From the NCBI GenBank assembly GCA_012033055.1, contig JAAUPR010000006.1, forward strand, positions 56,986 to 96,348: a stretch of 39,363 nucleotides of DNA, written 5' to 3'. The notes beneath the pieces were generated by a model. It was not told where the DNA came from. It saw nothing but the letters and a program-made list of their open reading frames with translations, and did no database searches. This document shows positions 2,544 through 38,191 of the stretch, in pieces (the first letter of the stretch is position 1; each line of letters starts with the position of its first letter). This stretch comes from Limnothrix sp. RL_2_0 (GTDB taxonomy: Bacteria; Cyanobacteriota; Cyanobacteriia; Cyanobacteriales; MRBY01). A program made the position numbers and the translations under genes.

Positions 2544-3614
2544 TCAGCGATCGCCGTAATTTTGCTGGAGCCAAATTTTATAATCACCAGAACGAACACG
2601 GGCTAGCCACAAAGAATTATCGAGATACCAATGCACCGTTTTGACCATGCCGCTGCCAAAATTTTCCTTGGGCTGCCAGCCAAGCTCCTGAGTGATTTTA
2701 GTACAGTCAATGGCATACCGTCGATCATGTCCTGCCCGATCCCGCACAAAAGTAATTAAAGACCCATAGTCAAAATTTTTACAGGGTCGCAGTTCATTCA
2801 ACAAAACACAAATCTTTTCTACCACCGCTAAATTTGTCAGTTCATTTAAGCCGCCAATATTATAGGTTTCACCGATGCGACCATCAGTTAAAACGCGGTA
2901 AATAGCCTCACAATGATCTGCCACATACAGCCAATCCCGAATATTTTGCCCATCGCCATAAATTGGTAATGGTTGCTGCTCCACCGCATTGAGAATCATC
3001 AAGGGAATCAACTTTTCAGGAAACTGGTACGCCCCATAATTATTTGAGCAATTTGTACATAAAGTTGGTAGGCCATAGGTTGCAAAATAAGCCCGGACAA
3101 AATGGTCAGAACTCGCTTTTGAGGCGGCATAGGGGCTATTCGGTTTATAGAGATTTGTTTCGGTGAAGGGTGGTTCTGTGGGGGCGAGGGAGCCATATAC
3201 TTCATCGGTGGAAATGTGGAGAAATTTAAAAGTTTTTTGTTTTGCTGGATCGAGATTTTGCCAATAATTTAGACTGGCTTCGAGTAGATGAAATGTCCCT
3301 AAAACATTAGTTTGAATAAAAATTTCGGGAGTTAAAATTGAGCGATCCACATGGCTTTCGGCGGCAAAATTAATGATGTAATCCGGTTGATATTTTTGCA
3401 AGATCTGATCAAGGAGAGGGCGATCGCCGATATCCCCTTGCACGAAAATATAGTCAGGATCCGTTGCTAAACTCGTTAAATTCTGAAGGTTCCCAGCATA
3501 GGTCAACTTATCTAAATTAATAATTTTTGCCCAAGCATTTTGGCGAGCCAGCAAAATAAAATTTGACCCAATAAAGCCAGCACCACCTGTGACCAAAAAT
3601 GTGGGTATTGCCAA
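2544..3614 (-). CDS. rfbB: dTDP-glucose 4,6-dehydratase
   Basis: A 356-residue extended short-chain dehydrogenase that converts dTDP-glucose to dTDP-4-keto-6-deoxyglucose, the second step toward dTDP-rhamnose for surface polysaccharide. Visible: NAD-binding [10 protein letters not shown] at residues 9-18, the catalytic ISTDEVYG at 134-141 (Asp137/Glu138), and YAASK at 162-166 with the catalytic Tyr and Lys. Length is normal. The only start that preserves the Rossmann fold is a TTG at 3612-3614, supported by an eight-base-spaced Shine-Dalgarno-like GAGGGG upstream. The rmlA, rmlC and rmlD partners are not in this window. Also known as rmlB. Confidence 0.95.
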
Positions 3615-3641
3615 AGTGTAAACCCCTCATAAATTAAAGTA

Positions 3642-6600
3642 TTACGAATCTGGATCTAATGTTGGAGTGGGTATATCTCTTGTATTTAACTCCCTAAAAA
3701 TCGTGCCTGTTTCCGGTGTCGGTGTATCGCTAAAAATCGTGTCCAGAGCTTCATCCAAGGTTTTTGCCATGACGATCTGATTGTCGTAAACGACGATAAC
3801 CCGCGCGAGGGTAGGCACACTATTTTCGTCGGCCTCAAGGTAAAGGGGTTCCACATAAAGCAAAGATTGCTCAATGGGAATTACTAATAAATTGCCCTGC
3901 ACTGCCCGTGAACCTTCCCGATCCCAGAGGGAAATTTGCTGGGAAATAATCGGGTCTTGTTTAATTAACGCTTCGATTTGATCGGGGCCATAAATGAGTC
4001 TTTGTTTGGGGAATTGATAGAGCAATAATTTGCCGTATTGATCCCCATCGGAACGTCCAGCCAGCCATGCAATTAGGTTGGGTCGGCTAATGGGGGTGTA
4101 GGGATGGAGCAAAATAAATTCTTCGGACTCGGCGGTGGGCAAGCGCATGATCAAATAGTAGGGGGCGATCGCCTTAGATTCACCACCATAAGTCTCCTGC
4201 GGAATTTCCCATTGATCCTCGCGGTTATAAAACACCTGAGCATCGCGCATGTGGTAACTCAACAGCCGTTCAGACTGGACACTGAACAGATCCGTCGGAT
4301 AACGCAAATGATTTTTAAGGTCGATAGGGAGATCAGCGAGGGGAAGAAACATCTCTGGAAAAGCTTTTTGCCAAGTCGCAATCATCGGATCACTGGGGTC
4401 GGCGATATAAAAACGCACCGTACCGTTATAGGCATTCACCACAACTTTGACGGAGTTACGGATGTAGTTAAAACGATTTTCTCCCGGATCGGAATAGGGA
4501 TAATGATCACTGGTCGTGTAAGCATCGATGAGCCAATACAAATAATTTTCTTCACCATTTTGATTCATATCCCCAGCCCGCGCCGTCACTAGATAGGGAT
4601 CCCGATCAAATCGCAAAATGGGCGATCGCCCGTACCCGTTCATTAATATTGCGCCGCATGAGCAAATGGGTTTCGGGAATGAGATCATTAGATAACAAGA
4701 TGCGCCAATCCTTGAGATATTTCGCAAACAACAAGCGCTTCCATGGATTGCCAAAACTAATGCCGCCCGTTCCATCGTAGATGTTGTAACTATTATCCTC
4801 ACCGCTGGGGTAATCCAATTCCTTCACCTTCGTCGCAGTCATCACATAGGTATTAGTCAGTTCACCGAAATAAATACGCGGTTGGCCGATCGGAATAGTT
4901 TTACGAATCTCTGGAGTAAGAGTGGTTAAATTCACCTCATCTTTCCCTGCTTCCCCTTCCCCTTCCCCTGCGCCAATATCCTGCACGTAATACACCGGTA
5001 AACCAGAATCACCCGCCTTATTAACCGGGCTCATCGTGAAGCCATAGCCGTGGGTATACACAAGATGTTCGTTGACCCAAGTTTTTGCCTGTTCTGGTAC
5101 AGCTTCATAATCTAATTCCCTCGGCGCGATAATCACCTGCTCTTGGGCTTCTGGCTGATCTGGTTCGGTACTCAGGGCATAACGATCGATGTCGGCATCG
5201 GGAAAACGATAGTAGAGGCGAATTTGCTGTAATTGTCGGTTAGTCTGCAACACTGGGCGGCTATCCCAGAGGCGGATATTTTTGATGGTTAGGGGGTTGT
5301 TTTGGATATCGGCGGCGGTGAGATCTTCTTCTGGGTTAAAGGTTTTTGATTCGATGGCATCTAGGCCGAAGGCGTTGCGGGTGTATTGGATGCTGTATTC
5401 GAGGTAGGGCAGTTCGCGGGCGAGTTCGTTGGGTTGGACAATGAGGCGCTGGGTGGCAGTGGCGGCAAGAATTCCTAGTCCCATGACACCGATGTAGAGA
5501 ATGATGCCTTTGAGAACTTGGGGCTGTCTGCGGCGGATGGAAACGGTGCGGCGGTAGGGGTAACGCCAAAATTGCACTAGACACCAACTGGCGATCGCCA
5601 ACGCGAGAACTGTTAATAAACCCTCCACAAATTGATCGATATAAATATTGGTGTAGCTAGCACCGTAGACCACGCCAAGTTTTGAGTACAGCAGTTCATA
5701 CCGCACAAGCCAATGTCGTCCCGCCACCGCGATAAAGAGCAACCCTGTGAGCAGATTTAGATGGCGCAACTGGGCAGGGCTAAACCCCGGAAATTTCCCT
5801 TGGGAAAAACTATCACCCGACAGTAAATAGCTCAGGGTGACACTCACGAGGCTGTAGAGAAATAGTCCTTCAAACCAAAAATCGAGAATTTGCCACAGCG
5901 GCAAGGTGAATACGAAAAAGCTCACGTCTTGGCCATAGATGGGATCCACTTGGTTAAAGCTTGTGGCATACCAACCCTGTAAAACGCGTACCCAATTATT
6001 GGAAAGCACGACCCCAAAACACAGGCTAAGCACGACGGCGATCGCCCGCATTGCCCACCACCTTTGCCAAAGCACCCCGGCCAATAAAACCCCGGCAACG
6101 AGAATGCGCCAAGATTGCTGTTCGAGCTGGATAATGATGCTGCGTACCGATTTAAACGCAAAAGGATCGGGTAAAGCCGGAGTGATTAGCGGCAAACTGA
6201 AATCCCGTTGTCCCATTTCCCAGACCACCGAGCCATAGTGAAACAGCACCAGCACAATCAGTAAACTAAAGCCCAACATCAACAGCAATAGCCAACGAAA
6301 GCCAATCACGGGGGATTCCGGAATTTTGGTGTGGTAGGGGATCGGTTCCGATACAATTCTTTGCCACCATTTCAACGGCGCACGGGGGACATTTTTGAGG
6401 CGATCGCCCCCAGATTGATCCGGCCATTCCTGCCATTCCTGACGATTTACGACACGATAATTAACCCACAAAAAACCAAGCGATCCCCCAAAGCCCAACC
6501 CCCACAAACCGAGGCGCACTGACATTTGTTTCAGAAAAACAGTTTCGTAATGCAGCTCGTCAAACCAAAATTTCTCTGCAAAAAATAGGGACACCAAGCT

Positions 6601-6666
6601 GAAGATGCCCCACAATGCTGCCACGGAACAGCAGGTATAAATGAAGATGGTTTGCTTTTTACCCAT
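3642..6666 (-). pseudogene. UPF0182 (COG1615) membrane protein, split by a frameshift
   Basis: The two reading frames together make one UPF0182 protein of about 1,000 residues, the family's normal length. The N-terminal part (6666 down to about 4630) has around seven hydrophobic helices and then the soluble UPF0182 domain, ending its frame at HFAI after [10 protein letters not shown]. The second frame resumes with [12 protein letters not shown] and runs to TPTLDPDS at 3642, covering the conserved [16 protein letters not shown] block. The family consensus here is ERVxxIAPFLRYDRDPY, so the join needs a net +2 or -1 base change at the CCC run (plus-strand GGG 4620-4622) touching a HIP1 site at 4622-4629. 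ATG 6666 is preferred over the upstream TTG at 6696. Function of UPF0182 is unknown. The annotated split may be real decay or a consensus error. Confidence 0.85.
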
Positions 6667-6920
6667 GTTGCCGATTGTATCGACTCTAGGGGGCAAAAAT
6701 CACAAGGTTAAAGGGACTTTCTCTAAAAGTTGTCGTAGTTCTGTCCCAAGGGCTTATCTCGCAAAGTATTCCTCAACGACTGGGCGATCGCCCTCAACAT
6801 CAAACCAGCAAAACAGAAAAATAGCAGTTGAAAATAAGCCATCGTAAAACTGCTGACTAACGTAAATTGTTATCGTGGTGAAAGGAAGGGCTTGTCGCCC
6901 AAAAGTTTCAGTTCTGAGCC

Positions 6921-7646
6921 ATGACATCACTCCCTAGCCAACGCCAAAAAAGTCTCCAGCGTCTCCTCGGCCAGATGGACTTAGACGATCACAGCCAAAT
7001 TCGTTGGGATTTACTCGACCTTGCCCTAACCCATCCCAGCATTTCCCCCGAAGAAAACTACGAACAACTCGAATTTATTGGTGATGCGGTCGTTCGTCTT
7101 GCCGCCTCAGAAGTGCTTTATGCCCAATACCCAGACGAGCCAGTGGGAGAATTTGCCGCGATTCGTTCTATCCTTGTCAGCGATCGCACCCTCGCCGAAT
7201 TCGCCCATATTTACAACCTCAAAAAATATCTACTTTTCCACGGCCATTACCAAGGAGCCGGAGAAGTTTCGTTACTAGCCGATGCTTTTGAAGCCGTATT
7301 AGGAGCATTATTCTTGGCAACGAATGATTTAAGCCTTGTTCATAGTTGGCTCGATCAACATTTACGCAAAAAAGCCGCCGAAATTAAACTCGATCCCGCC
7401 CGCGAAAATTACAAAGATGCCCTACAGGTATGGACTCAGAGCGAACATCAACAATTGCCCACCTATCAAGTGCAAGAGAACCCCGATTTTCAGGATGAGG
7501 AAGAACGATTTTTAGCAACAGTGTCCCTCGGTAAAACTCTCTTAGGCAAAGGGAAAGGGCGATCAAAAAAAGCAGCTCACCAAGCGGCGGCACGGGAAGC
7601 CTATGAGGCGATCGCCATTGACGAGAGCGACGATGCCAAAAGGTAA
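6921..7646 (+). CDS. rnc: Ribonuclease III
   Basis: A 241-residue protein with the RNase III endonuclease domain followed by a double-stranded-RNA-binding domain. It would process rRNA precursors and structured mRNAs in the cytoplasm. The signature is EQLEFIGDAVVRLA near residues 47-60 (family ERLEFLGDAVL, containing catalytic Glu and Asp), and the second acidic pair is in LLADAFEAVLGALFL. The dsRBD begins at NYKDALQVWTQ and ends with the basic helix motif GKGRSKKAAHQAAAREAYE. Single gene facing away from the UPF0182 gene and convergent with mutT. Cyanobacteria often carry more than one RNase III-like gene; this is a full-length one with both domains. Confidence 0.93.
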   Translation: MTSLPSQRQKSLQRLLGQMDLDDHSQIRWDLLDLALTHPSISPEENYEQLEFIGDAVVRLAASEVLYAQYPDEPVGEFAAIRSILVSDRTLAEFAHIYNLKKYLLFHGHYQGAGEVSLLADAFEAVLGALFLATNDLSLVHSWLDQHLRKKAAEIKLDPARENYKDALQVWTQSEHQQLPTYQVQENPDFQDEEERFLATVSLGKTLLGKGKGRSKKAAHQAAAREAYEAIAIDESDDAKR

Positions 7647-7812
7647 TTTTTGCCCAAAGAAAAACGCCCAGGAGTCTGACCTTGTTTCGACCCTAAGCGC
7701 TTTTCGGCGATTCCTCACACCGGATATGCTTTGAGACGGGACTGTTGCCGCAAAGTTCCCCCATATTTTTCAGGCAAAAACACGCTATTTTTTTCCCGTT
7801 CCCCAGTTCCTA

Positions 7813-8208
7813 TCACCGCTGCTGAATCGCTTCAATAATCGCCTGATTCGCCTCTGGAAAAGTAAACTCACCTAAATCTTTTGGTGCAACCCAGCGGATC
7901 TCTTGGCACTCGATCGCCTCCGGTTCACCCCCCAGATATTCGCACCAGTGGACGTGCAGCGATACTTTGAATTTGGGGTAATCATGTTCAATTAAAATCA
8001 GGCGATCGCCAACCCTGATATCTAGATTAATCTCCTCCTTGATCTCCCGCGCAATGCAAGCCTCCACCGTTTCCCCCGGCTCGATCTTCCCCCCCGGAAA
8101 CTCCCACAGACCCGCCATCTCCCCCTTGTCTAAACGGCGATCAATCAAAATCTGTCCTTGGCGATCGCAAATCACAGCCACACCAATCCGCTTGTGGGGC
8201 AAAACCAT
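7813..8208 (-). CDS. mutT: MutT-type Nudix hydrolase (8-oxo-dGTP diphosphatase family)
   Basis: About 131 residues. The Nudix box is clear: G-G-K-I-E-P-G-E, then seven residues, then REIKEE. The motif's usual final Gly is Asn here (EEINL). The family removes oxidised nucleoside triphosphates from the pool. The open frame extends to a TTG at 8226, but ATG 8208 is preferred because GGAGAAAGG lies at a suitable distance upstream and the N-terminus MVLPHKRIGVAVICDRQG then matches the family. The ATG overlaps the stop of a possible 38-aa membrane ORF as TGATG, suggesting translational coupling. Exact substrate cannot be told from sequence alone. Confidence 0.88.
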   Translation of the reverse strand: MVLPHKRIGVAVICDRQGQILIDRRLDKGEMAGLWEFPGGKIEPGETVEACIAREIKEEINLDIRVGDRLILIEHDYPKFKVSLHVHWCEYLGGEPEAIECQEIRWVAPKDLGEFTFPEANQAIIEAIQQR

Positions 8209-8324
8209 CAGTTTCCCTTTCTCCAAACCACAAAATAAACCCGCCCATTATAGGAGATGTTACGAGCCATAAACCAACCCCAAATTCCTATAGAGACTGA
8301 TGTTATCGTCAAGAGCATCACCAT
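8208..8324 (-). CDS. Possible 38-aa single-pass membrane protein, coupled to mutT
   Basis: A short frame from ATG 8324 to TGA 8208-8210. The peptide begins MVMLLTITSVSIGIWGWF (one membrane helix), followed by a short polar, basic tail ending VVWRKGN. A good Shine-Dalgarno-like GAGGA sits eight bases before the ATG. Its stop overlaps the mutT start as TGATG, a typical coupling geometry. I do not recognise a family. Against it: it is short, and no homologue can be checked here. It may instead be only the mutT leader. Confidence 0.45.
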   Translation of the reverse strand: MVMLLTITSVSIGIWGWFMARNISYNGRVYFVVWRKGN

Positions 8325-8375
8325 AAAATTCGTCCTCAAATTTCCGTCCCCTAAGTCTTGGACTTTTTCTAAACT

Positions 8376-8585
8376 GTGACTTGGACTACAATTAGAACCA
8401 CAAAAGCCCGTTGGGAAGCCGAATTTCTGGGACAAATGCTAGAGTCCCACAGCATCCCCAACCGTGTACTGGACATCGGACTAGGAATCTACTTTGGGCA
8501 AGGAAGTCAAGCCGCTCTCCAAGTGCGATCGCAAGATCAATGGACAGCCCGACTCCTCCTCAGTCCGCCAGAAGATGACCTCTGA
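8376..8585 (+). CDS. DUF2007-like small protein
   Basis: A 69-residue protein starting at GTG 8376. The pattern W-T-T-I-R-T-T-x-A-R-W-E-A-E-F-L-x-x-M-L-E-S-x-x-I-P resembles the DUF2007 (putative signal-transducing) fold, in which a short beta-alpha-beta unit compares residues before and after an 'inherited exposure' segment; it ends with a QVRSQDQWTARLLL helix. It lies 26 bp upstream of accD on the same strand, so the two may be co-transcribed. Role unknown. No strong ribosome-binding site precedes the GTG, so the start is only the best available one. Confidence 0.6.
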   Translation: MTWTTIRTTKARWEAEFLGQMLESHSIPNRVLDIGLGIYFGQGSQAALQVRSQDQWTARLLLSPPEDDL

Positions 8586-8611
8586 CAAAATTTGTTTCGC
8601 CATAACCGCCT

Positions 8612-9571
8612 ATGTCTCTTTTTGATTGGTTTGCTGCAAATCGCCAAAATAACGAATCTGCTCACCAGCCCCAGCAGGAGCGAGAAATTGCCGATGGTCT
8701 CTGGACAAAGTGCAAATCCTGCGATGTTCTGACCTACACCAAAGACCTACTCCACAACCAAATGGTCTGCAAAGAATGCGGATTCCACAACCGCGTTGGC
8801 AGCAGTGAACGTATCCGCCAATTGATCGACGATGGCACCTGGGTGGAGATTAGCACCAACATTACCCCCACCGATCCCCTCAAGTTTCGTGATAAAAAAG
8901 CCTACTGCGATCGCCTCAAAGACTACCAAGAAAAAACAGGCATGAACGATGCCGTTGTCACAGGAACAGGTTTGATCGACGGTTTGCCCATTGCCCTCGC
9001 CGTTATGGACTTTGCCTTTATGGGGGGCAGCATGGGTTCCGTCGTAGGGGAGAAAATTTGTCGCCTCATCGAACACGGCACAGCCGAAGGATTTCCTGTC
9101 GTTGTTTTCTGTGCTTCCGGTGGGGCGCGAATGCAAGAAGGCATGTTGAGCCTGATGCAAATGGCAAAAATTTCTGGAGCCTTAGAACGCCACCGCGCCA
9201 AAAAATTACTCTATATCCCCGTCCTCACAAACCCCACTACGGGAGGAGTTACAGCTAGTTTTGCGATGCTAGGGGATCTGATCATTGCTGAACCTAAAGC
9301 AACCATCGGTTTTGCCGGACGACGGGTGATTGAACAAACCCTGCGCGAAAAATTACCCGACGATTTCCAAACCTCAGAATATTTACTCCAACATGGCTTT
9401 GTCGATGCCATTGTGCCCCGTACAGAAATGAAGCGAACCTTAGCGCAGATGATTAGTTTGCACCAGCCCTTTCACGCGATCTTACCGGAGCTACAGATCG
9501 AGACTCACGTGGAACAAGAGAAGGAAAAAGTTTATGAAACTGTTGCTTCCACTAATGATTTTTATAAGTAG
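8612..9571 (+). CDS. accD: Acetyl-CoA carboxylase carboxyltransferase subunit beta
   Basis: A 319-residue protein. The N-terminal zinc ribbon has four cysteines, C34-x2-C37 and C53-x2-C56, as in bacterial and plastid AccD. The carboxyltransferase core shows [39 protein letters not shown] and [21 protein letters not shown], the oxyanion-hole and CoA-binding blocks. With AccA it transfers CO2 from carboxybiotin (on AccB) to acetyl-CoA, the first committed step of fatty-acid synthesis. accB lies about 3.7 kb downstream in the same orientation but in a separate unit. Start ATG 8612 gives the family's normal N-terminus (MSLFDWF). Confidence 0.97.
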
Positions 9572-9830
9572 ATTTAACTTATTTCGTTAAGAACACAAAA
9601 TTCTGCTAATTCAACGGCTGTAACTTAGTTTGTCTACGATGCAGAAATCACCGATAGGCAAAGGTAATGGCCTTAATTGCTGTTTCTGTTGCGAAATGTA
9701 CGGTTCCTACTGGCATTCGTGTTAATTTTAATGAACTACCCTTATGTGTTCCCCTTTTCCAAATATTTGGAATTGCATTTTTTGGGAAGACAAAGGGATT
9801 TTTTATCTCGATCATGAGTGGAAGTGGCGT

Positions 9831-10739
9831 ATGCATTTAAGTAATTCGATTTGGCAAAAAAAGGCTTTAAGTTGGGAATACCATAAGGCCGCCAATCCTA
9901 GTCTTGCTGATGTCCCGATTCGCGCTTTTCCAGCCAGTCTCCACGAATCTGGCCAAACTCGCATCATTCCCCTTGATCTTTCTGTGGAATTGGGTACAAA
10001 GTATCGGGCGACAACCCCAAATCTCTTGGCTAACTATATTCGGATTGAGGCAGGGACAAAAATTTCGGCGATCGCCGCCTCTAGTTCCGAAGTCTTTTAT
10101 GTGATGCGCGGCACAGGCCGCACCGAAACCGAATACGGTATTTTAGAATGGCAAAAAGGTGATTCTTTCACTTTGCCGATGAACTCCGGTGTTACCCACT
10201 ACGCCGATACCGACGCCGCTTTATATTGGGTACATGACGCGCCCATGTTGGCCTACCTCGGAGTACAGCCCACAGCTCCCCGCTTTGAACCAGCCTTCTA
10301 CTCCAGCGAATATCTCACCGGCGAAATCGAGCGCATTCGTGAAGAGGGAATTCGTCGTAACCTCAACCGCAATGGCGTTATCCTCGGCAACCCAGAGAGT
10401 GAATCCACCCGCACAGCCACCCACACAATGTGGTCACTCTATAATCTTGTGCCACCCCATTCCGCCCAGAAACCCCACCGCCACAATTCCATTGCCCTCG
10501 ATTTAGCAGTATCAACCAAGGAAAATACCTATACCCTCATCGGCAAATCCCTCGATCATGACGGCAACATTATTAACCCAGTCAAAATGATGTGGCAGCC
10601 CAACAGCGTTTTTGTGACACCTCCGAGCCTCTGGCATTCCCATCACAACGAATCCGACGAAGATGCCTTTGTCTTTCCAGTCCAAGATGCTGGTATGCAA
10701 ATTTATATGCGTACCCTTGATATTCAGTTTGCTAAATAA
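9831..10739 (+). CDS. Bicupin protein (gentisate-dioxygenase-like cupin)
   Basis: About 302 residues from ATG 9831; the open frame extends upstream to 9744, but that stretch does not look like cupin sequence. Two cupin barrels are visible. The first (SSEVFYVMRGTGRTETEYG ... WQKGDSFTLP) lacks the metal-binding His residues. The second keeps a fuller set: KPHRHNSIALDL and PPSLWHSHHNESDEDAF. This one-degenerate, one-intact pattern is seen in gentisate/salicylate dioxygenase-like bicupins. The substrate is not predictable, and aromatic ring cleavage would be a guess. It stands alone between accD and a gene-poor stretch, with 259 bp of non-coding DNA upstream. Confidence 0.75.
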   Translation: MHLSNSIWQKKALSWEYHKAANPSLADVPIRAFPASLHESGQTRIIPLDLSVELGTKYRATTPNLLANYIRIEAGTKISAIAASSSEVFYVMRGTGRTETEYGILEWQKGDSFTLPMNSGVTHYADTDAALYWVHDAPMLAYLGVQPTAPRFEPAFYSSEYLTGEIERIREEGIRRNLNRNGVILGNPESESTRTATHTMWSLYNLVPPHSAQKPHRHNSIALDLAVSTKENTYTLIGKSLDHDGNIINPVKMMWQPNSVFVTPPSLWHSHHNESDEDAFVFPVQDAGMQIYMRTLDIQFAK

Positions 10740-10868
10740 TTATTCGTAATGGCAATATTTTTTGATCAGCTCTTTCGTTCAATACGGAGGGGCTTTTCTG
10801 TCTGAAACCAGCGTTCAGTTTGTCAATAGTCTTTAGAACCCACGATGCTTGCAGAAATAGCAGAATCC

Positions 10869-10949
10869 TTATTTGGGCGTTTTCAGTTCTTGTACAACAC
10901 AGATAACGGATAGAGAAAGAATAGAAATTAAAAGAGTTAAACTTGCCAT
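10869..10949 (-). CDS. Possible 26-aa membrane peptide
   Basis: Frame ATG 10949 to TAA 10869-10871. The peptide starts MASLTLLISILSLSVICVV and ends in a short polar tail QELKTPK, the size and layout of tiny single-helix membrane proteins. It lies 51 bp downstream of the 58-aa ORF on the same strand. No ribosome-binding site is evident, and no match to known photosystem small subunits is recognised. Weak call. Confidence 0.25.
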   Translation of the reverse strand: MASLTLLISILSLSVICVVQELKTPK

Positions 10950-11000
10950 TTTTTTACTTGCAGATAATACAAACTAAAATTCGACTTATAGATTGAGTTT

Positions 11001-14733: not shown

Positions 14734-17700
14734 TTAATGGGCGGCGATCGCCGATTTTTTTCCCTTCGTTGCCACCACAGCCTGCTGCAAAGATTCAATT
14801 AACTCCTGGTCGAGATAGGGCTTCGTTAAATAGCCATTAGCACCCAATTGATCCGCGAGCTGGCGGTAACGCTTACTACCACGGGAGGTCAGCATCAAGA
14901 CTGGCAACTCTGTTTTAGGATGTTGTTTTCGGCAGCGTCCGAGGAACTCAAAACCATTCATTTGGGGCATTTCCACGTCACAGATAATGCCTTCCACCTC
15001 TGGATGTTGCTCCAGTTGACTCAACCCGTCCGAACCATCTTGGGCTTGAACGACCCGATAGCCAGCCTTTTGTAATGTTGTCGATAGAGTTTGGCGTGTA
15101 GTTAAAGAATCATCAATCACTAACACCGTCGGTAACACTAATTTGGGTTTGAGGCGATTCGCCCCTGTGTCGATCATCGCAATTTGCTTGGTTCCCTTTT
15201 GTAGCACCCGTTCCATCAGTGCCGCACCGTCTAATACAGAGACCAAACGCCCATCACCTAGCACCGTACAGCCGGAAATGTAATTGGGGGGGTTGATGGC
15301 ACGACCGAACGGTTTAATCACCAAATTTTGTTCCAACAGAATCTGATCAACCTTGATGCCCATCATGTCGTCACCTTGGGATAAGAGCAACACCATTTGC
15401 TGCCCTGCCTGTTTCCAGACGGAGCTAACATTACTTCTTGCCCATGTACCCATCATTTGTTGGCGGCTGGCAATGAGGGATGAAGGATAATTAAAGCCCA
15501 CTAAAAATTCTTGGATTAGGGGAATAGAACGATTCTTCCAGCGGAAAAATTCTTTACCATCTTTATTACTCAGATCCTGAGGACCTGCAGCGGCGATCGC
15601 CGACAAACTATTTACTGGAATTGCCAAAAAGCTTTCCTGAGAACGGAATAACAATAACTTCGTAATCGTCATACTCCACGGCAAGCGCAGAGTAAACAAT
15701 GTGCCCTTATTTAATTCCGAAGACAGCGAAATATTACCCTTTAGAGAACGAATTTGTAGACGCACAGCATCTAAGCCGACACCCCGTCCCGACAAGTGAG
15801 TGAGTTTTTCCGCCGTCGAAAAGCCCGGAACAAACAACAACTCATAGATTTGCGCCTCCGACATTTGAGCAGCTTCCGACTCCTCAATCAATCCTTTGCC
15901 AATGGCCTTCGCACGAATTTTGTTGAGATCAATCCCCCGGCCATCATCCCGAATTTCAATATAAGTGGAATTCCCCCGGTTATAAGCCTTAATGAGAATC
16001 GTCCCCTCCTCCGATTTGCCTGCTGCCATCCGTTCTTCTGGCATGTCAATACCATGGTCAAAAGCATTGCGTACAAGGTGTACAAGGGGATCATAGAGCT
16101 TTGACAAAACCGCTCGATCCACAAGGGTTGATGTTCCTTCTAGATCTAATTTGACAGGCTTATTGCCTTTAACCGATAAATCCCGCACAGTTCGCGGAAA
16201 ACGATTCAGCAGATCACCGATGGGCAACATCCGCGCTTCGAGGAAATTATGCTCTAGTTGCTTAATTGTTTGCTGACGGTGTTTGAGGTTTTGTTGATCC
16301 TGCTGGTTAATGAGAGTTGTATCTTCAATGGTTTCCCCTAGTTGCGCCATTTCCTCCACCATCGTGGCGGCAAAAATCACAAATTGTGCTAATTGAGACC
16401 GTGCTTGGGGATTTTTGATGACTAATTCTTTCGAGTATTGCTGGAATTGGTTCGTGATTTTATTGAATCGGTTAAACCAACGCTTGAGGGAGTCGAGGGC
16501 ATCGGAACTCTGTTTATTACGCAATAGGGCGCTGTTGTCTTGGGTGACCAGTTCCCCCACAAGGTTATTGAGGTAATTTAACCGTCCCATATCGAGACGA
16601 ACACTGAGGCTACTCGTATCGACTTTTGTCGGAGATTGCCGCGCTGTTTTGGGTAATGGAGCCGATTCAACTTGCGGAGTCGGTTTAGCTGGAGCTGTGG
16701 CTTGGGGCGGAGGAACCTCAAGGCGGGCAGCGACAACTTTTTCTGGAGGAATGACGGGTGTTATTTTGAGTTCTGGAGGTGGAGCTATTGGTGTCGCCAT
16801 GGGAGTTGGGGGCACAATGATTGGCTCAGGCTCGGGATCGGGTGCAGGCAAAGGCTCAACAATCTGTGGGGCTTCAATCTGTGGGGTTTCCTGTACAACG
16901 GCACTGAGGAGATCGCCGTCATCTTCGGAGTCGTCTTCAATAATTAGATTGGCGAGATCGTCTGCGGAAAAGAGTAGTTCTGTGGAGTCGTCTTCGTCGT
17001 CATCTTCGCCCTCAGCAAAGGCATGGAGTGTTGCTAATTCGTTTGCATCGAGCATTAAGTCTGGGATTTCAGCTTCTGGGGAAGGGAGGAGGGCTGAACC
17101 GTTACTTTTTGAGGGAGTAGTGGGTTGTACGACTGGAAGTTCTGGGGGGGCCGCAATACTTTCGGTCATTGTGAGCAGGGCAATGCTTGGTTCGCCTCCT
17201 TCGGTACGATCGCCATTGATAACGGCTTCTTGGCCAATACGAAAATCAGCTAGGGCTAAGGCGGCAATTCTGACATATTCCCGTGGATTGGCTTCCATGG
17301 CACTAGTGGCTGCTTGGGCGATCGCCGCAAACCCCCCAAGATTGAGCATATCCCCCAACGTCGATAGCACCTCGATCTGTGAAGTCAGCTCACCGATGGG
17401 ATTTCTAGTGGGAGGATTATTCACAAACTTTTCCAGACGAGATAGCGCTTGGGGCACTTCTTCCGTGAAAATAAATTCCGTGATGTCCCCATCCATCTGC
17501 ATTTCTGGCAGCTCCGCCGCTTCCTCTAGGGAATGGCCCAGTTTACTTTCTAGCTCCACAAAAATAGGCTTCGCTTTTTCGATGGCAATCTCTGGGTCGT
17601 AGCCCCCCGCCTGAATTTGCTGATTAATTGGCTCTTGCAGAGCATCATAGGCCTTGAGCAGCAAGTCTTCTAGCTCCACATCAAAGACCGTATCTTCTTT

Positions 17701-17942
17701 ATATAAAGCCCGAATCCCGTTCTCCAAATCGTGGGCGATCGCCTGCACAGCCATCAGACCAATACAAGCAGCCCCCCCTTAATCGAATGAGCCGCCCGCA
17801 TCAACCCATGCAGCTTTTGCATCTCATGATCCTGCGACAAAGTCATCAGCCCAGACTCTAAGTGCTGCAACAGCTCCGTAGACTCCTGCACAAAAAATTC
17901 ATACGCTTGGTCGTTAGTGTCAACGTTAGTTTCCCTAGCCAT
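14734..17942 (-). pseudogene. pixL: CheA-type hybrid histidine kinase with C-terminal receiver (PixL-like), frameshifted
   Basis: A CheA for phototaxis, encoded in two frames. From ATG 17942 the first frame gives an Hpt domain to LHGLMRAAHSIKGG (phospho-acceptor His52), then hits TGA. The rest resumes in the next frame, about 1,006 residues with Met at 17754: a second Hpt-like stretch, a long acidic/proline-rich linker (~200-380), a dimerisation helix (~381-410), an HATPase domain (N-box HLVRNAFDHGID, G1 DDGRGID at 603-609, G2 GRGVGLDAV), a CheW-like domain (~695-855) and a receiver domain (VLVIDDS, phospho-Asp at about 926, K978). One base added to the C7 run at 17772-17778 restores IKGGAACIGLMAVQAIAH. 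Last gene of the pix-like operon. Real loss of function or a base-count error. Confidence 0.85.
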
Positions 17943-18140: not shown

Positions 18141-21100
18141 CTACTTAACCTTAAACTCAGACACACTCTGTTTTAGTTCACCCGCAACCCCCAACAGCTT
18201 CGTAAACGATTGAGCCACCTTGACAGACTGTTCAGACGTTTGGTTCGAGATCAGCGCCACATCCTGCATCGTCTGGTTCAGCTCATTCGAGATATTCACC
18301 TGAGTCGAAGCAGACTTCGCAATCTCCTCAACCACACGGTTAATACTAGTACTTACCTTGGCCAAATCCGTTAGCGTTTGCCGCGTCCCCTTCACCAACT
18401 TAGTGCCAATAAGTACCCGTTTACGGCCAATATCCATGGCCTTGATTACCTCATTAGTCTCCGATTGAATTTCTTCAATGATTTCCTCAATCTCTTTCGT
18501 CGCATTGGCCGATTGTTCCGCTAAAGTACGAACCTCATTCGCTACCGCAAAACCTTGCTCCTCCTCACCAGCACGGGTCGCTTCCACAGAAGCATTCAGT
18601 GCCAACAAATTAGTTTGATTAGCCAACTCACGAATCAAATTCAAAACACGAGAGATCTTTTGGGAGGCATCCGCCAAGTTTTTAACCTTGCGGGCCGTCG
18701 CTTCCACCGTTTGTTGGATAGCAAAAATACCTTGGACTGTGCGGTTCATGGCCACATCACCAGCCTTAAGAGTTTTGTTCGCCAACTGTACCTTCAGCCG
18801 CGCATCTTGGGCATTCGTTGCTACCTCTTGAATAGAAGCAGTCATGTCCGTAATTTTGCTGAGGGCATCTCCAACACTCTCTGCTTGGCGCAACGCTTCT
18901 GTCGAGAGGTTATTAATTTGGGCTTCACTATCTTGGGCCGTTTCCGACACAATCACCGTTGATTCTTGTACCTGTTGTACAAGTCGTTGCAGGTTTTCCA
19001 AAGTTGCGTTAAAAAAGTCAGCAACCGTTCCCATTTCACCGTCTGTTACACCAGCGCGAACCGTTAAGTCCCCTTCAAAAGAGTCTTCAATTTCCTCAAG
19101 GAATGTTTCAATTTGTCCTTGCAGAACTTCTTTTTGTTGACGTTGCTCATTAGAAGCCAGCTCTGCTTTTTGGCGTGAGCCTTCAATTTCTTCTAGGAGT
19201 AACGCTTGGTCAAGGGCGTAACCTAACTGGATTGCCACTTGGCGGAACGATTCAACAAGGGGAGCCTCCCATTCTCTGGTGCTAGCGCATTGATGTGCTC
19301 CAAGGAGTCCGTATAGCTTTTGGTTTACCAAAATTGGTACAACCACGTTGGCTTTTACTTGCCATTTTCCAAGTTGTTCTTCGTGGCAGGCGGTTAATCC
19401 GGCTTGGCTCACATCAGGCGTCACTTGGACACGACCTTGGCGATAAGGCTCTACATAGTCCTCTGGGAAACAAGGGGTATCTCCAGAAGTCATCATGTCT
19501 TCGCTCAGTTTTCGCCAGCCGGAGGTGACGGCTTCAAATTTAATGCGCCCATCCCAGTTGTCGTCAAAGCGATAGACCACAACTCGGTCACACTTCATCA
19601 GTTTGAGTGCTTCTTCTACCCCTGTCCGGAAAATTCGCTCAATGTCTAAGGACTCACGAATTCGGAAACTGATGAGGTTTACTTGACGGGTTCTGACGAT
19701 CGCCTGTTCTTGAGTTTCCCGTAGTAGGGCTTGGTCAAGGGCATAACCCACTTGCTCGGAGAGTTGTCGAATGGTTTCAATTTCGACGTCGCTCCAAGCG
19801 CGGATGCTGGCACATTGATGGACGACCAAAAGACCATATAGCCGTTGGTTCGCCATAATGCCTGCAGCCATGTAGCCTTTAACGCCATAGGGCGAAAATT
19901 CACTAATGTGGCAATCGGCAAAATCGGAATTAAAGATATCCGTAACCGCTTTGATATTGCCCTTTTGATAAGACTTAGAAAGCTTCTCTGTGACGTGGGG
20001 TTCGTTCGTTCTGACTCCGAGGGTGGCCGGATAACCGGAAATAACGGATTCTGCGGTGATTAATCCTTTCCAAGAAGAATCGAACTCGTAGATGATTGCG
20101 CGATCGCCGCCAAGAATATCACGGGTTTCTTCCACTGCCACCGCCACAATTGAGGCCACATCAGAAGCATCTTGTAGACGAACTCGGGTCTCATCAAGGC
20201 GCTTGGCTCGTTCCTGTTCCTGTTTTAGGAAGGCTTGCTCCAGCACATACCCTACCTGTTGAGCAATTTGCTTGAGGGTATTCGTCTCCGTGTCACTCCA
20301 CTGGCGAGGCTTCGAACATTGGTGAACGATTAACAAGCCGTAGAGCTTTTGGTTGGCGATAATGGCCACCGCCATGTAACCTTTCACCCCGTGGGACTCG
20401 AATTCTTTGATATGACAATCTTGGAATTCCGCTTCATAAATATTGGTGTAAGCTGTGACCTTACCCCGGAGATAAGCCTTGGCAAATTTTTCAGTAACCC
20501 GTGGCTCGTTAGTCTTGAGGCCAATGATGGAGGCATTACCCGGCAGGACAGATTCAGCATTAATCAAACCCCGCCATTCGTTGTCAAATTTGTAGACCAC
20601 GCTACGATCTGCATCCAGAATATCGCGAGTCTCTTCCACCGCTGCATTGAGTACTTCTTCGATTTCGAGGGACTCTTGTAAACGAGCACTGATTTCACTG
20701 AGGCGTTGGGCACGCTCGGTGGTCATCTGCCGTTGTTCAATGAGGTTCACCCGCTCTAGGGCAAAGCTCACTTGGTTACTGATTTGTCGCAGCAAGTTAT
20801 TCTCTGTGTCTTGCCATTGACGGGAGCTTTGACAGCTTTGCACCACCATTAGACCGTAAAGATTTTTCTCAATGGAGATGGGAGCAATCATCAAAGATCG
20901 CACTTGGGTACTTTCCATGTGCTCTAGTTGGAAGTCCGTTAAACCAGCACCCGTCACGCGATTCATGACGGTGATTTTGCCCCGTTGTGCTTGTTTTGTG
21001 TAGCGTTCATCAAGGCCGCAATCATGGAGGCTTTTACCCATTAAGCTCTTCCAGCGGGGATCTCCAGATTCGGCGATCGCCGTCCCCTTGAGCTGAGCAT

Positions 21101-22526
21101 CCGTTTGGAAAATCAAAACCCGATCCGCCTTTAACGCTTCCCGCGCATCATCCACAACACTATCGAGAATCTCCTCAACATCACTGTAACTACCCAAACG
21201 AGCCGAAATATCATTGAGAATCTTGGCCTGAAGCGCCGTATCCTCCTGTTGCTGTAACGCAAAAGCCTGATCGAGAGCCGTGCCAATTTGAGTCGCCGCC
21301 TTCTTCAGCATCTCCGTCTCATGATCCGACCAACGGCGAGGAAGAGAACATTGATGCACAATCACAAAGCCCATCAGCTTTTGTTGAGCCACAAGAGGAG
21401 CAATCAAACTTGCCCGAATCGCCCGAGCCTTCAACTGATCCAATACATGATCATCGATGTCAGCCTCATAAATATCATTGACAGCATTAATGTGTCCCCG
21501 TAAATATGACTCGTGGTAGGACGCATCCAACCAAGGATCTTCGAGACTCATGCCCATCGTGCTGGGAAACTGTCGTTCCACAGATTCCGCAACAACCGAA
21601 TTATTACCATCTCCCATTAAGCGGCAAACCACCACGCGATCGCCTTTGAGAGCATTGTGGATTTCCTGCACCGCCGCCGTAAAAATATCATCCGTTGTTA
21701 AAGACTCACGGATACGGACACTAATCTGGTTCAACCATTGAGCCTGTTCCGCCGCCGAACGCTGCTGATCCAACAACAACGCTTGGTCAAGGGCATAACC
21801 CACCTGTACTGCCAACTGCCGGAAAAAATCAATCTCAGACTCAGACCATTGCCGTGACGCCGAACATTGATGGGCCACCAACAAACCATAAACTTCACCA
21901 CCCAACAACAAAGGGGCCGTTAAACTCGCCTGGGTTTCCAGCTTCCGTAACTGTTCCAGCTGAGAACTATCTATTTGAATGGAATTGCCAATATCATCGA
22001 TCGCCTCAACCCGCCCCTGTTGCCAGAGCTTAATCGTCTGATCCGATAGAGTATGGCCCGAATAGCTAGAACCAAGAGCACTAGACCAGCGCCGTTCCAC
22101 CGACTCATGGGTCACCTTACCTAACCAATTTTCATCAAATTGATAGACCACCACCCGGTCCACATCCAACGCATTGCGAGAATCCGCCACCGTCGCATTG
22201 AGAATATATTCAAAGTTAAGAGATTCACGGATATGGGAGGTCATCGCGTTTAATAGCTCTGCCCGCTCTACTGCCGCCCGCTCCGTCGCGAGGAGGGATT
22301 GCAGTTCGTCAGTCATCATGTCGATATTTGACCGGAGACTACTCAGTTCCCCTACCAAAGCACCAGCCTTAGACGTTAAAGCTGAGTGCTTGGCCTCTGC
22401 GGAGACGGACTGAATGGGCACAAGGGTCAAGGTTTCTTCCATCTGCCGATCATGGCTGTTAATGATGGACTGGGTATCAATGTTGTTATTTCTCGGGTCG
22501 TTGGGTCGAATGGGTGCTTGAGTCAT
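18141..22526 (-). CDS. pixJ: Six-GAF methyl-accepting chemotaxis protein (PixJ/PtxD-like photoreceptor)
   Basis: A 1,461-residue soluble receptor with no obvious membrane helix. After a ~90-residue N-terminal helix come six GAF domains, near 95-250, 266-422, 437-592, 609-765, 780-935 and 951-1110. A HAMP-like segment (~1130-1190) and an MCP signalling hairpin (~1200-1450; tip RELANQTNLLALNASVEATR) follow. The cyanobacteriochrome Cys-His bilin-attachment pair is present in GAF4 (C704-H705), GAF5 (C872-H873) and GAF6 (C1047-H1048). GAF6 also has a DXCF-like TPCF (C1019). GAF1-3 lack the pair. Most GAFs carry the family GLL-x-x-HQC strand. Position between CheW and CheA genes supports a light-sensing role in phototaxis. 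Multi-GAF receptors of this design are known from Nostoc (PtxD). Bilin binding is inferred, not shown. Confidence 0.9.
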   Translation of the reverse strand: MTQAPIRPNDPRNNNIDTQSIINSHDRQMEETLTLVPIQSVSAEAKHSALTSKAGALVGELSSLRSNIDMMTDELQSLLATERAAVERAELLNAMTSHIRESLNFEYILNATVADSRNALDVDRVVVYQFDENWLGKVTHESVERRWSSALGSSYSGHTLSDQTIKLWQQGRVEAIDDIGNSIQIDSSQLEQLRKLETQASLTAPLLLGGEVYGLLVAHQCSASRQWSESEIDFFRQLAVQVGYALDQALLLDQQRSAAEQAQWLNQISVRIRESLTTDDIFTAAVQEIHNALKGDRVVVCRLMGDGNNSVVAESVERQFPSTMGMSLEDPWLDASYHESYLRGHINAVNDIYEADIDDHVLDQLKARAIRASLIAPLVAQQKLMGFVIVHQCSLPRRWSDHETEMLKKAATQIGTALDQAFALQQQEDTALQAKILNDISARLGSYSDVEEILDSVVDDAREALKADRVLIFQTDAQLKGTAIAESGDPRWKSLMGKSLHDCGLDERYTKQAQRGKITVMNRVTGAGLTDFQLEHMESTQVRSLMIAPISIEKNLYGLMVVQSCQSSRQWQDTENNLLRQISNQVSFALERVNLIEQRQMTTERAQRLSEISARLQESLEIEEVLNAAVEETRDILDADRSVVYKFDNEWRGLINAESVLPGNASIIGLKTNEPRVTEKFAKAYLRGKVTAYTNIYEAEFQDCHIKEFESHGVKGYMAVAIIANQKLYGLLIVHQCSKPRQWSDTETNTLKQIAQQVGYVLEQAFLKQEQERAKRLDETRVRLQDASDVASIVAVAVEETRDILGGDRAIIYEFDSSWKGLITAESVISGYPATLGVRTNEPHVTEKLSKSYQKGNIKAVTDIFNSDFADCHISEFSPYGVKGYMAAGIMANQRLYGLLVVHQCASIRAWSDVEIETIRQLSEQVGYALDQALLRETQEQAIVRTRQVNLISFRIRESLDIERIFRTGVEEALKLMKCDRVVVYRFDDNWDGRIKFEAVTSGWRKLSEDMMTSGDTPCFPEDYVEPYRQGRVQVTPDVSQAGLTACHEEQLGKWQVKANVVVPILVNQKLYGLLGAHQCASTREWEAPLVESFRQVAIQLGYALDQALLLEEIEGSRQKAELASNEQRQQKEVLQGQIETFLEEIEDSFEGDLTVRAGVTDGEMGTVADFFNATLENLQRLVQQVQESTVIVSETAQDSEAQINNLSTEALRQAESVGDALSKITDMTASIQEVATNAQDARLKVQLANKTLKAGDVAMNRTVQGIFAIQQTVEATARKVKNLADASQKISRVLNLIRELANQTNLLALNASVEATRAGEEEQGFAVANEVRTLAEQSANATKEIEEIIEEIQSETNEVIKAMDIGRKRVLIGTKLVKGTRQTLTDLAKVSTSINRVVEEIAKSASTQVNISNELNQTMQDVALISNQTSEQSVKVAQSFTKLLGVAGELKQSVSEFKVK

Positions 22527-22613: not shown

Positions 22614-23108
22614 TTAACCTAAACTTTGGTCTCTCAGGGCCGCCAAGAGGGCTTCAAGGTTGACGCCCAATAGTGTTTTTCCTTGGGAAGAGGAATATTG
22701 ACCGTCAATTAGGGGCGCGGCTTCGGGCTTGATCTGGCTGGGAATACCCGGAACAATCTCTTGGCGATCGCACCGTACGAGTTGTCCCACTTCCGTGACC
22801 AAGAGGCCAAAATTGTGTTGATTTACCGAAACCCGCAACAGACTACATTTCGCCGATTGGTAGTCCGTACTGAGTAGAGGCGATAAACCAAGGGCATAGG
22901 CGAGATCCACTAACCAGAGCACTTCACCCCGCCAGCCACACACACCCACCACCGCCGGGGGCAAATCAGGGATTTGCACGATTTTTCCCAATTCCAAATT
23001 GATCGTTTCCGTCAATTGGTGGGTGGGAATCATCCCCCAAACTGCTCCAGACATCAAAAAACTGATGTATTGGAGCGTTGAATTATCTGTAGTTGATGCA
23101 GCAGTCAT
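22614..23108 (-). CDS. pixI: CheW-like adaptor (PixI-like)
   Basis: A 164-residue CheW domain protein that would couple the MCP to the CheA kinase. Family marks: the N-terminal strand YISFLMSGAVWGM, the PDLPPAVVGVCGWRGEVLWLVDL block (CheW consensus LPxxIxGVxNLRGxVxPVxDL) and the C-terminal helix after LLGVNLEALL. Cys/Trp replace the usual Asn-Leu in GVCGWRG, as in the Pix/Ptx-type CheW proteins. It is third in the operon, 87 bp upstream of the MCP gene. Confidence 0.9.
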   Translation of the reverse strand: MTAASTTDNSTLQYISFLMSGAVWGMIPTHQLTETINLELGKIVQIPDLPPAVVGVCGWRGEVLWLVDLAYALGLSPLLSTDYQSAKCSLLRVSVNQHNFGLLVTEVGQLVRCDRQEIVPGIPSQIKPEAAPLIDGQYSSSQGKTLLGVNLEALLAALRDQSLG

Positions 23109-23251: not shown

Positions 23252-23613
23252 CTACTTAACCCATTTTTTGACAGCATCTAACAATTTTTGCTGATCAATC
23301 GGTTTGGTCACATAGTCATTGGCCCCTTGTTTGCTGGCCCATTTTTTATCCATTTTTTCGGACTTGCTAGAGCACATGATGATAGGGATACTTTCCATCT
23401 CAGGGTTGTTTTTGATTTCTCGGCAGAGACCAAAGCCGCTTTGACCGGGAAGTACCACGTCAAGCACAATGCCATCGATGGTTTTTGACTCAAAATTGCC
23501 TTAGCTGCTTCTGCTGTAGTGACTTTGAGTAAAGTGAATCCTGCTCCTTCTAGACAGCTAGTGATAATTTGAGCTTCTGTGGGACTGTCTTCAACGAGCA
23601 ATAATGTTGCCAT
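23252..23613 (-). pseudogene. pixH: CheY-like response regulator (PixH-like), frameshifted
   Basis: A single receiver domain in two frames. From ATG 23613 the first frame gives MATLLLVEDSPTEAQIITS (acidic pair E-D) through AAKAILSQK, then goes out of register. The other frame continues with IDGIVLDVVLPGQSGFG (phospho-acceptor Asp in VLDVVLP), then PIIMCSS (switch Ser/Thr) and VTKPIDQQKLLDAVKKWVK (conserved Lys). Adding one base to the five-T run at 23482-23486 restores a normal 120-residue CheY. It would carry phosphate from CheA to the pilus motor. Confidence 0.88.
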
Positions 23614-23694: not shown

Positions 23695-24927
23695 TCATAG
23701 AGCTGAGCTTGCTGCGTTGGTATTAGAGCTTATGTCTTGATCATTTTGTTGATCGGCGAGTCCTGCTGCTTCCTCCAAATATTTCTCGACGATAGCTAGG
23801 GTTTTCTCTGGATCGGGGGGTTTGCCTAGGAAATCCGAGGCACCAACGAGCTTGGCTCTGTTGCGGTCGATGAGTGTATCGCGACTGGTGAGAACAATGA
23901 TGGGGGTTTTCTCAAATACCGAGGTTTGCCGCAAGAACTTACACACACTGTAACCACTGGCATTTGGCATTACAAGGTCAAGGATAATCACGTCTGGCTG
24001 GTTTTCGATCAGCTTGGCCACCCCCCGCATTGGTTCGTTAATTGCCAATGTTTGATAGCCAGCTCCTTCTAGTATCTTCTTCAGGGTTTGGAGCACAACC
24101 GGACTATCGTCGATACAGGCAATCAATCCTTTGCGTTGCTGGGTTTTTGGGTTGCTTTTTACTTCTTCTTGTTTAAGGTTTTCTTCGAAGGGATGGGGCA
24201 GATCGGCAACTTTTTTGAGCTGAACGATGCGCTTTTTTAGCAGGGGAATCAGGGCTTTGGTGACGTTGATAACGGATTTGCTGAGGCGGACGGAGATATC
24301 CCACAGGGTAAATTGACCGTTGAGGTAGCGGCCTAATATGCCTAAGGCGGCGGGGTCGATGCCTGTTTTGAGGACGGGGGCAAGGGTTGGGCTGAGGTTG
24401 CCGAGTCCTGACACCTGCCATTGGTGTTGGAGGTGCATTACTTTGCCGAGATCGGGTTCTACTTCTAGGTAGGAGAGGGATAGGCTCAGGGGCATTTCTG
24501 AGGCGTTTCTTTTGCCTTCTCGCCATTCGATGCTGACGTTGTTGTAACAGCCGAGATCAAAAAAGACTTCTTGGGCGATCGCCCGAATAATCGACTTTGC
24601 CTGCACCACAGTGAGTTGTTTGTTGGTGATGCCTTGGTAGAGTAGTTGGTACTCCCACATATGACCATCATTGAGGTTACTAGGGTCGGGAACCCACTGG
24701 GGAACCAATCTATGGATGATCCGATTCCAGCGACGGGTTCCGTGCATACCCGAGGTTGCATACAACAGCCGACCGGACAAAAGATGGATCTGGCCTTGGC
24801 ATTGACTATTACCCACAACTAGCTCACCCGTTGCCCGTTTTTGGCAAAGACTGTTCAGCTGTTCGGCGATTGATTTAAGTGTGTTGGCTGCTGCTGTCAT
24901 ATCGATATTCAAAGCATTCCCGCCCAT
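23695..24927 (-). CDS. pixG: PatA-type response regulator (PixG-like): DUF4388/PATAN domain plus receiver
   Basis: A 410-residue protein and first gene of the operon. The N-terminal ~230 residues form a PatA-like (PATAN) domain: GELVVGNSQCQGQIHLLSGRLLYA is the DUF4388-type strand pair, and the second half ends in a helical stretch. A linker (~255-275) leads to a C-terminal receiver: LIACIDDSPVVLQTLKK (Asp pair), DVIILDLVMPNASGY (phospho-acceptor Asp), TPIIVLTSRD and FLGKPPDPEKTL (Lys). In Synechocystis the equivalent PixG acts in phototaxis. The ATG at 24927 is accepted; a second Met at 24900 is possible. Confidence 0.9.
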   Translation of the reverse strand: MGGNALNIDMTAAANTLKSIAEQLNSLCQKRATGELVVGNSQCQGQIHLLSGRLLYATSGMHGTRRWNRIIHRLVPQWVPDPSNLNDGHMWEYQLLYQGITNKQLTVVQAKSIIRAIAQEVFFDLGCYNNVSIEWREGKRNASEMPLSLSLSYLEVEPDLGKVMHLQHQWQVSGLGNLSPTLAPVLKTGIDPAALGILGRYLNGQFTLWDISVRLSKSVINVTKALIPLLKKRIVQLKKVADLPHPFEENLKQEEVKSNPKTQQRKGLIACIDDSPVVLQTLKKILEGAGYQTLAINEPMRGVAKLIENQPDVIILDLVMPNASGYSVCKFLRQTSVFEKTPIIVLTSRDTLIDRNRAKLVGASDFLGKPPDPEKTLAIVEKYLEEAAGLADQQNDQDISSNTNAASSAL

Positions 24928-37999: not shown

Positions 38000-38191
38000 C
38001 CAAATCCCCTTCCCTAGTCAACTTTTGTGAAACTTTAGCATTTATTTATAAAAGCGAAAAATGCAGTGGTGTCCCTAATTTTTTCCTCGCGGTAACTATG
38101 GGGAACTGCTAGAAACTGTCTTGTCAGTGTACTGGAGATTCGGAAAGATGAAGGTCAATTACTGCAATTCTTTTAATAATTTTTTGTGAAC
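38000..38191. promoter_or_regulatory. chlR-chlAII divergent promoter region
   Basis: 192 bases shared by both genes, AT-rich. Candidate operator-like features are the direct repeat acttttgtga/aactttagca at about 38021-38040 and the small inverted repeat CAGT-GT-ACTG at 38125-38134. Which, if any, is the ChlR site cannot be decided by eye. Confidence 0.4.

What the first reader, a model, noticed from the sequence alone, without database searches (positions are those of the whole stretch)
18141..22526. Photoreceptor MCP with a C-terminal-only gradient of bilin-binding GAF domains
Seen in sequence: six GAF repeats. GAF4, 5 and 6 have the Cys-His pair (C704-H705, C872-H873, C1047-H1048). At the aligned place GAF1 has no Cys, GAF2 has His360-Val361 and GAF3 has Phe532-Gln533. 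GAF3 still keeps a lone Cys503 after Asp502, near the DXCF position. GAF6 has both Cys1047 and a DXCF-like TPCF (Asp one residue further back), so it may be a dual-Cys blue/green-type sensor with a changed motif. The three intact domains are the ones nearest the HAMP and signalling hairpin, and GAF4 and GAF5 are near-duplicates. Inference: three different light inputs in one soluble receptor, with three structural or ligand-free GAFs in front.
Basis: partly seen in the sequence, partly recalled or inferred. Interest (0 to 1): 0.65.

Follow-up and report, generated by a model that had tools for sequence, protein, structure and literature searches.

The report
Phototaxis receptor with half-silenced light sensors
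This is a PixJ-type phototaxis receptor of a Picosynechococcus-group cyanobacterium in which the three front pigment-binding domains have lost the cysteines that hold the pigment while the three nearest the signalling end keep them; it is a good new example of a known kind of light sensor, not a new kind.

Summary
The 1461-aa gene lies on the minus strand (22526-18141), has six GAFs and an MCP signalling domain, and every residue number given is right. Cys704, Cys872 and Cys1047 sit at the canonical bilin position; Cys1019 aligns with the second Cys of TePixJ. The protein is PixJ in a pixG-H-I-J-L (tax1-like) cluster. All six GAFs fall in the DXCF cyanobacteriochrome clade. In the nearest relatives outside the genus (Okeania, Trichodesmium, Symploca, Lyngbya) nearly all 4-5 GAFs are dual-Cys, so most simply GAF1-3 lost both Cys, GAF4/5 (a tandem duplicate pair) lost the second, and GAF6 kept both. 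All six genomes held for the genus share this pattern. Keeping Cys in the last GAF while the first is lost is common in the PixJ family (last GAF intact in 75 of 80 proteins, first in 39). GAF6's changed motif is not an oddity: its whole clade has [D/E]-[V/T/A/I]-[P/T]-C-F-P instead of DXCF. 'Three different light inputs' is overstated: GAF4 and GAF5 share nearly the same pocket, so two sensor classes are likelier. GAF1-3 remain under purifying selection. No HAMP was detected. Bilin binding and colours are not testable here.

The parts
18141..22526 (-). pixJ-like gene: six GAF domains plus MCP signalling domain, 1461 aa, no predicted membrane helix
21753..22271 (-). GAF1 (residues 86-258), no Cys at either bilin site
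21237..21752 (-). GAF2 (259-430), Trp at second-Cys site, His360-Val361 at canonical site
20721..21236 (-). GAF3 (431-602), Asp502-Cys503-Gly504 (invariant in the genus), Phe532 at canonical site
20217..20720 (-). GAF4 (603-770), canonical Cys704-His705, EPRV at DXCF site; tandem duplicate of GAF5
19701..20216 (-). GAF5 (771-942), canonical Cys872-His873, EPHV at DXCF site
19176..19700 (-). GAF6 (943-1117), dual Cys: Cys1019 (DTPCF) and Cys1047-His1048; most conserved GAF in the genus
19386..19388 (-). codon of canonical Cys1047
19470..19472 (-). codon of second Cys1019
18717..19175 (-). linker (1118-1270) between GAF6 and the signalling domain; HAMP not detected by Pfam
18255..18716 (-). MCP signalling domain (1271-1424)
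23695..24927 (-). pixG-like: DUF4388 plus receiver domain
   Evidence: same order in L054 and in Okeania/Symploca/Trichodesmium loci
23308..23613 (-). pixH-like CheY; reading frame breaks near 23485 compared with PCC 7117
22614..23108 (-). pixI-like CheW
14734..17754 (-). pixL-like CheA with HATPase, CheW and receiver domains

Best explanation
The protein is the PixJ-type phototaxis receptor of a tax1-like cluster (pixG-H-I-J-L order). Shown by sequence: six GAFs of the DXCF cyanobacteriochrome lineage in front of an MCP signalling domain, with the CheW, CheA, CheY and PatA-like partners next door. Inferred history: an ancestor had an array of dual-Cys GAFs, as the nearest relatives outside the genus mostly still do; in the Picosynechococcus lineage GAF1-3 lost both Cys and stay as structural or ligand-free modules, GAF4/5 duplicated and kept only the canonical Cys, and GAF6 kept a dual-Cys pocket. 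Inferred mechanism: GAF6 binds phycocyanobilin/phycoviolobilin through Cys1047, with Cys1019 reversibly attacking C10 (a blue- or violet-absorbing dark state going to green or a nearby colour); GAF4/5 bind a bilin through one Cys and give a second, longer-wavelength input; photoisomerisation is passed along the linker to the MCP hairpin and alters PixL kinase activity, PixG/PixH phosphorylation and type IV pilus steering.
For: GAF6 best solved match is TePixJ (E 1.4e-38) with both Cys aligned; the GAF6 model matches TePixJ 3vv4 at 41% identity, TM 0.87-0.90 by target length. Of the seven TePixJ pocket positions examined, GAF6 differs only at the Asp in all six species. Tree: all six GAFs inside the 99/97-supported clade with TePixJ and apart from the red/green clade; GAF6 with the terminal GAFs of Okeania, Trichodesmium, Symploca and Lyngbya at 100/100; GAF4 with GAF5 at 100/100. 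In those relatives nearly all GAFs are dual-Cys. dN/dS 0.03-0.11 in every domain, GAF6 slowest of the GAFs by dN. Operon partners; one heme oxygenase and one ferredoxin-bilin reductase family gene in the genome; pilus-type ATPase family genes present. PixJ1 and PtxD precedents: PMC5812497.
Against: No biochemistry. The Asp of DXCF is displaced in GAF6, which could alter photochemistry. GAF4 has lost the His after Cys in one congener (L011), so that domain is not strictly constrained. The branches that place GAF2 and GAF3 within the clade are weak or long. pixH is frame-broken in this assembly, so the pathway may be incomplete in this strain unless that is a sequencing error. dS is near saturation, so dN/dS is only indicative. 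Whether this strain is motile is unknown.
Confidence: 0.75

Rival explanations
1. Three spectrally different light inputs (GAF4, GAF5, GAF6 each a different colour).
For: All three have Cys-His at the canonical site; PtxD of Nostoc punctiforme has at least six bilin GAFs and conversions among six colours (PMC5812497).
Against: GAF4 and GAF5 are a duplicate pair with almost the same pocket letters in five of six species, so equal or similar colours are more likely.
Confidence: 0.2
2. Only GAF6 is a working light sensor; GAF4 and GAF5 are on the way to losing bilin binding like GAF1-3.
For: GAF4/5 lack the second Cys and have E, K/N, E, Y where the dual-Cys pocket has D, R, Q, N; GAF4 is decaying in one species with Cys-Gln; GAF6 is the most conserved GAF.
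Against: Cys-His of GAF5 is kept in all six species and of GAF4 in five; Tyr at the Asn site is common in single-Cys GAFs (42 of 82).
Confidence: 0.25
3. GAF3 is still a ligand sensor that uses the invariant Asp502-Cys503 pair (a displaced second Cys, or a different ligand).
For: D502, C503, G504 and the following LDERY are invariant in all six species although the domain otherwise diverges to 65%; confident model with a cyanobacteriochrome fold.
Against: No canonical Cys or His; Cys503 is one residue off the second-Cys column; residue conservation alone does not show ligand binding.
Confidence: 0.1

Closest known systems
TePixJ (Thermosynechococcus), DXCF blue/green cyanobacteriochrome MCP
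   Same: Closest solved match of GAF6; both Cys, and the Arg, His, Gln and Asn of the pocket positions examined, in register; MCP output
   Different: Motif DTPCF instead of DPCF with the acidic residue one place earlier, plus a three-residue insertion before it; six GAFs
Synechocystis PixJ1 (tax1 locus)
   Same: pixG-H-I-J-L gene set; only the last of its two GAFs binds bilin (PMC5812497)
   Different: PixJ1 has two transmembrane segments and two GAFs; this protein has no predicted membrane helix and six GAFs
PtxD / NpF2164 of Nostoc punctiforme
   Same: Large multi-GAF MCP in a taxis gene cluster; two of its domains use a second Cys (PMC5812497)
   Different: At least six of its seven GAFs bind bilin; here only three can by the Cys criterion
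Five-GAF and four-GAF PixJ of Okeania, Trichodesmium, Symploca, Lyngbya (L055-L069)
   Same: Terminal GAF with the same [DE]-x-[PT]-C-F-P motif; GAF6-to-linker region 60-68% identical; flanking pix genes where the locus is long enough
   Different: Their other GAFs are nearly all dual-Cys; no GAF4/5-type single-Cys pair

Membership tests
PixJ-type phototaxis receptor (tax1/ptx clusters) | GAF array fused to an MCP signalling domain | tested here: met
PixJ-type phototaxis receptor (tax1/ptx clusters) | Neighbouring CheW, CheA-receiver hybrid, CheY and PatA-like regulator genes | tested here: met
   the CheY frame is broken in this assembly
PixJ-type phototaxis receptor (tax1/ptx clusters) | Required for directional movement in light | not testable with these tools
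   needs a knockout in a motile strain
DXCF cyanobacteriochrome GAF (GAF6) | Canonical Cys-His plus second Cys followed by Phe at TePixJ spacing (28 residues) | tested here: met
DXCF cyanobacteriochrome GAF (GAF6) | Asp two residues before the second Cys | tested here: not met
   Thr, Val or Ala there; Asp/Glu one residue earlier in the whole clade. So it is not a strict DXCF domain by motif; placement in the lineage rests on the tree
DXCF cyanobacteriochrome GAF (GAF6) | Groups with DXCF GAFs in a tree | tested here: met
   99/97 and 100/100
DXCF cyanobacteriochrome GAF (GAF6) | Covalent bilin and reversible photoconversion | not testable with these tools
   needs expression and spectra
Red/green (XRG) cyanobacteriochrome (GAF4, GAF5) | WxDxxL motif with conserved Trp (PMC11284453) | tested here: not met
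   TNEPxVTEK, no Trp
Red/green (XRG) cyanobacteriochrome (GAF4, GAF5) | Groups with the red/green NpR6012g4 (6bhn) lineage | tested here: not met
   identity of 6bhn

The most novel reading that the evidence does not exclude
The terminal GAF clade ([DE]-[VTAI]-[PT]-C-F-P) is an unnamed dual-Cys subfamily in which the pocket acid has moved by one residue, giving photochemistry distinct from DXCF, and the Cys-less GAF1-3 have been kept as ligand-free relays that tune one C-terminal light switch.
Probability: 0.2. Interest if true: 0.5.

Novelty: new member of a known kind. Interest (0 to 1): 0.3.

Why it matters
It gives a clean natural series for how multi-sensor receptors evolve: the same receptor with almost all domains dual-Cys in filamentous marine relatives and with three silenced, two single-Cys and one dual-Cys in Picosynechococcus. 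It also points to a clade-wide shift of the DXCF acid that can be tested by spectroscopy, and to the question why Cys-less GAFs are kept under selection.

Tried and rejected
Plus-strand translation of the given range: full of stops; the gene is on the minus strand. A first alignment of orthologs with some loci in the wrong orientation was discarded and redone. HAMP search by Pfam at E 10: nothing. A literature search for Picosynechococcus plus cyanobacteriochrome found no paper in the library, and none on the [DE]xxCF variant stood out. GAF4/5 as red/green type: rejected by motif and tree.

Full report
The gene. The range 18141-22526 holds one ORF on the minus strand, ATG at 22526, 1461 aa. 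Pfam gives six GAF stretches and an MCP signalling domain at residues 1271-1424. No 19-residue stretch averages above 1.55 on the Kyte-Doolittle scale, so it is probably soluble. A HAMP was not found by Pfam in the linker even at E = 10, although NCBIfam chemoreceptor models align across it.

Position of the Cys. Alignment with solved structures puts Cys1047-His1048 of GAF6 on the ECH site and Cys1019 on the DPCF site of TePixJ, with 28 residues between the two Cys, the spacing of TePixJ C494 and C522 (residue numbers from PMC6955287). GAF4 and GAF5 carry Cys-His at the canonical site and EPRV or EPHV at the DPCF site, so they are single-Cys. GAF1-3 have neither; Cys503 of GAF3 is one residue before the second-Cys column, and its neighbour Asp502 is at the DXCF Asp column. 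At seven TePixJ positions (D492, C494, R507, C522, H523, Q526, N535) GAF6 reads T/V/A-C-R-C-H-Q-N, GAF5 mostly E-H-N/K-C-H-E-Y, GAF4 mostly E-R-K-C-H-E-Y, GAF3 D-G-K-F/T/S-Q-H/A/T-L/M. D492, C494, C522, H523, Q526 and N535 are named as pocket or linkage residues in PMC6955287; the role of R507 is from general knowledge of the family.

Surroundings. Upstream on the same strand lie a PatA-like regulator (23695-24927), a CheY-like ORF (23308-23613) and CheW (22614-23108); downstream is a CheA-receiver hybrid (14734-17754). This is the pixG-H-I-J-L set of tax1 (PMC5812497). The same neighbours flank the gene, in the same order, in PCC 7117 (L054) and in several Okeania, Symploca and Trichodesmium loci long enough to show it. 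The genome has one heme oxygenase and one ferredoxin-bilin reductase family gene, three MCP signalling domains and pilus-type ATPase family genes.

Relatives. In one congener (L011) GAF4 reads Cys-Gln and is more diverged. The nearest relatives found outside the genus have four or five GAFs, nearly all dual-Cys. In a set of 80 PixJ-like proteins with two or more GAFs, drawn as the best matches from one order plus named loci, the last GAF has the canonical Cys in 75 and the first in 39. Counting one protein of the genus only, 32 have it in the last but not the first and 1 the other way round, sign test p = 8e-9, not corrected for relatedness. The pattern with three empty, two single and one dual was seen only in this genus.

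Tree. A tree of 99 GAFs puts all six in a 99/97-supported clade with TePixJ and the soluble dual-Cys GAFs, apart from the red/green lineage of NpR6012g4. GAF6 joins the terminal GAFs of the relatives (100/100), GAF4 and GAF5 form a pair (100/100; 53% identical), GAF1 joins the first GAFs of the relatives weakly (92/70), GAF2 and GAF3 are placed less surely, GAF3 on a long stem. The simplest reading is loss of Cys from dual-Cys ancestors; this is inference from the tree.

Motif of GAF6. Among 147 dual-Cys GAFs, 118 have Asp two before the second Cys. The 20 terminal GAFs of this clade in the census (14 of the relatives, six of the genus) have Val, Thr, Ala or Ile there and Asp or Glu one residue earlier. 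The three-residue insertion before it is limited to the genus in this sample. So the 'changed motif' is a conserved trait of the clade.

Selection. dN/dS lies between 0.03 and 0.11 in all parts, GAF1-3 included, and mean dN is lowest among the GAFs for GAF6 (0.073). dS is near saturation, so these are rough. GAF1-3 are therefore not decaying freely.

Structure. Models of GAF3 (mean pLDDT 92) and GAF6 (87) both match cyanobacteriochrome GAF structures best. The tool gives no coordinates, so I could not ask whether Cys503 faces the pocket.

Function. The most likely role is a phototaxis receptor acting on PixL and the CheY proteins, by analogy with PixJ1 and PtxD (PMC5812497). The colours cannot be read from sequence: GAF6 is likely a PVB-type dual-Cys sensor; for GAF4/5, single-Cys but DXCF-derived, the type is open. 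'Three different light inputs' is less likely than two classes.

Limits. The relatives came from one order-level draw and one genome scan; other orders were not searched, so the reach of the [DE]xxCF clade is not known. No experiment was done. The library holds open-licence papers only, so an earlier description of the variant motif may exist in papers I could not read.

Noticed in passing
window 23308-23613 (minus), break near 23485: The pixH-like CheY gene loses its frame about half way by a one-base difference from PCC 7117, which has a full-length CheY. Sequencing error or real loss cannot be told apart here.
   Followed up: partly
window 3642-6696 (minus): A UPF0182 family gene is split over two frames (profile positions 4-545 and 544-770). 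A second frame break in the same window makes assembly error more likely for both.
   Followed up: partly
window 37601-37999 (minus) and 38186-39268 (plus): An HxlR-type regulator stands head to head with a rubrerythrin-fold gene that looks like AcsF (chlorophyll biosynthesis; family, AcsF from general knowledge); a candidate regulator-target pair.
   Followed up: no
window 593-1444 (minus): Uma2-family protein with a tail of EQEKQRA heptad repeats.
   Followed up: no
L123 (G052), ORF 2504-10967: A 2821-aa PixJ-like protein with eleven GAFs, ten single-Cys near-copies followed by one dual-Cys GAF.
   Followed up: no
L080-L087, L101, L107-L111 (first GAF of many two-GAF PixJ proteins with a long N-terminus): Many two-GAF PixJ proteins have a first GAF with a Cys at the DXCF site (DPCI) but Asp, Glu or another residue at the canonical Cys site.
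   Followed up: no
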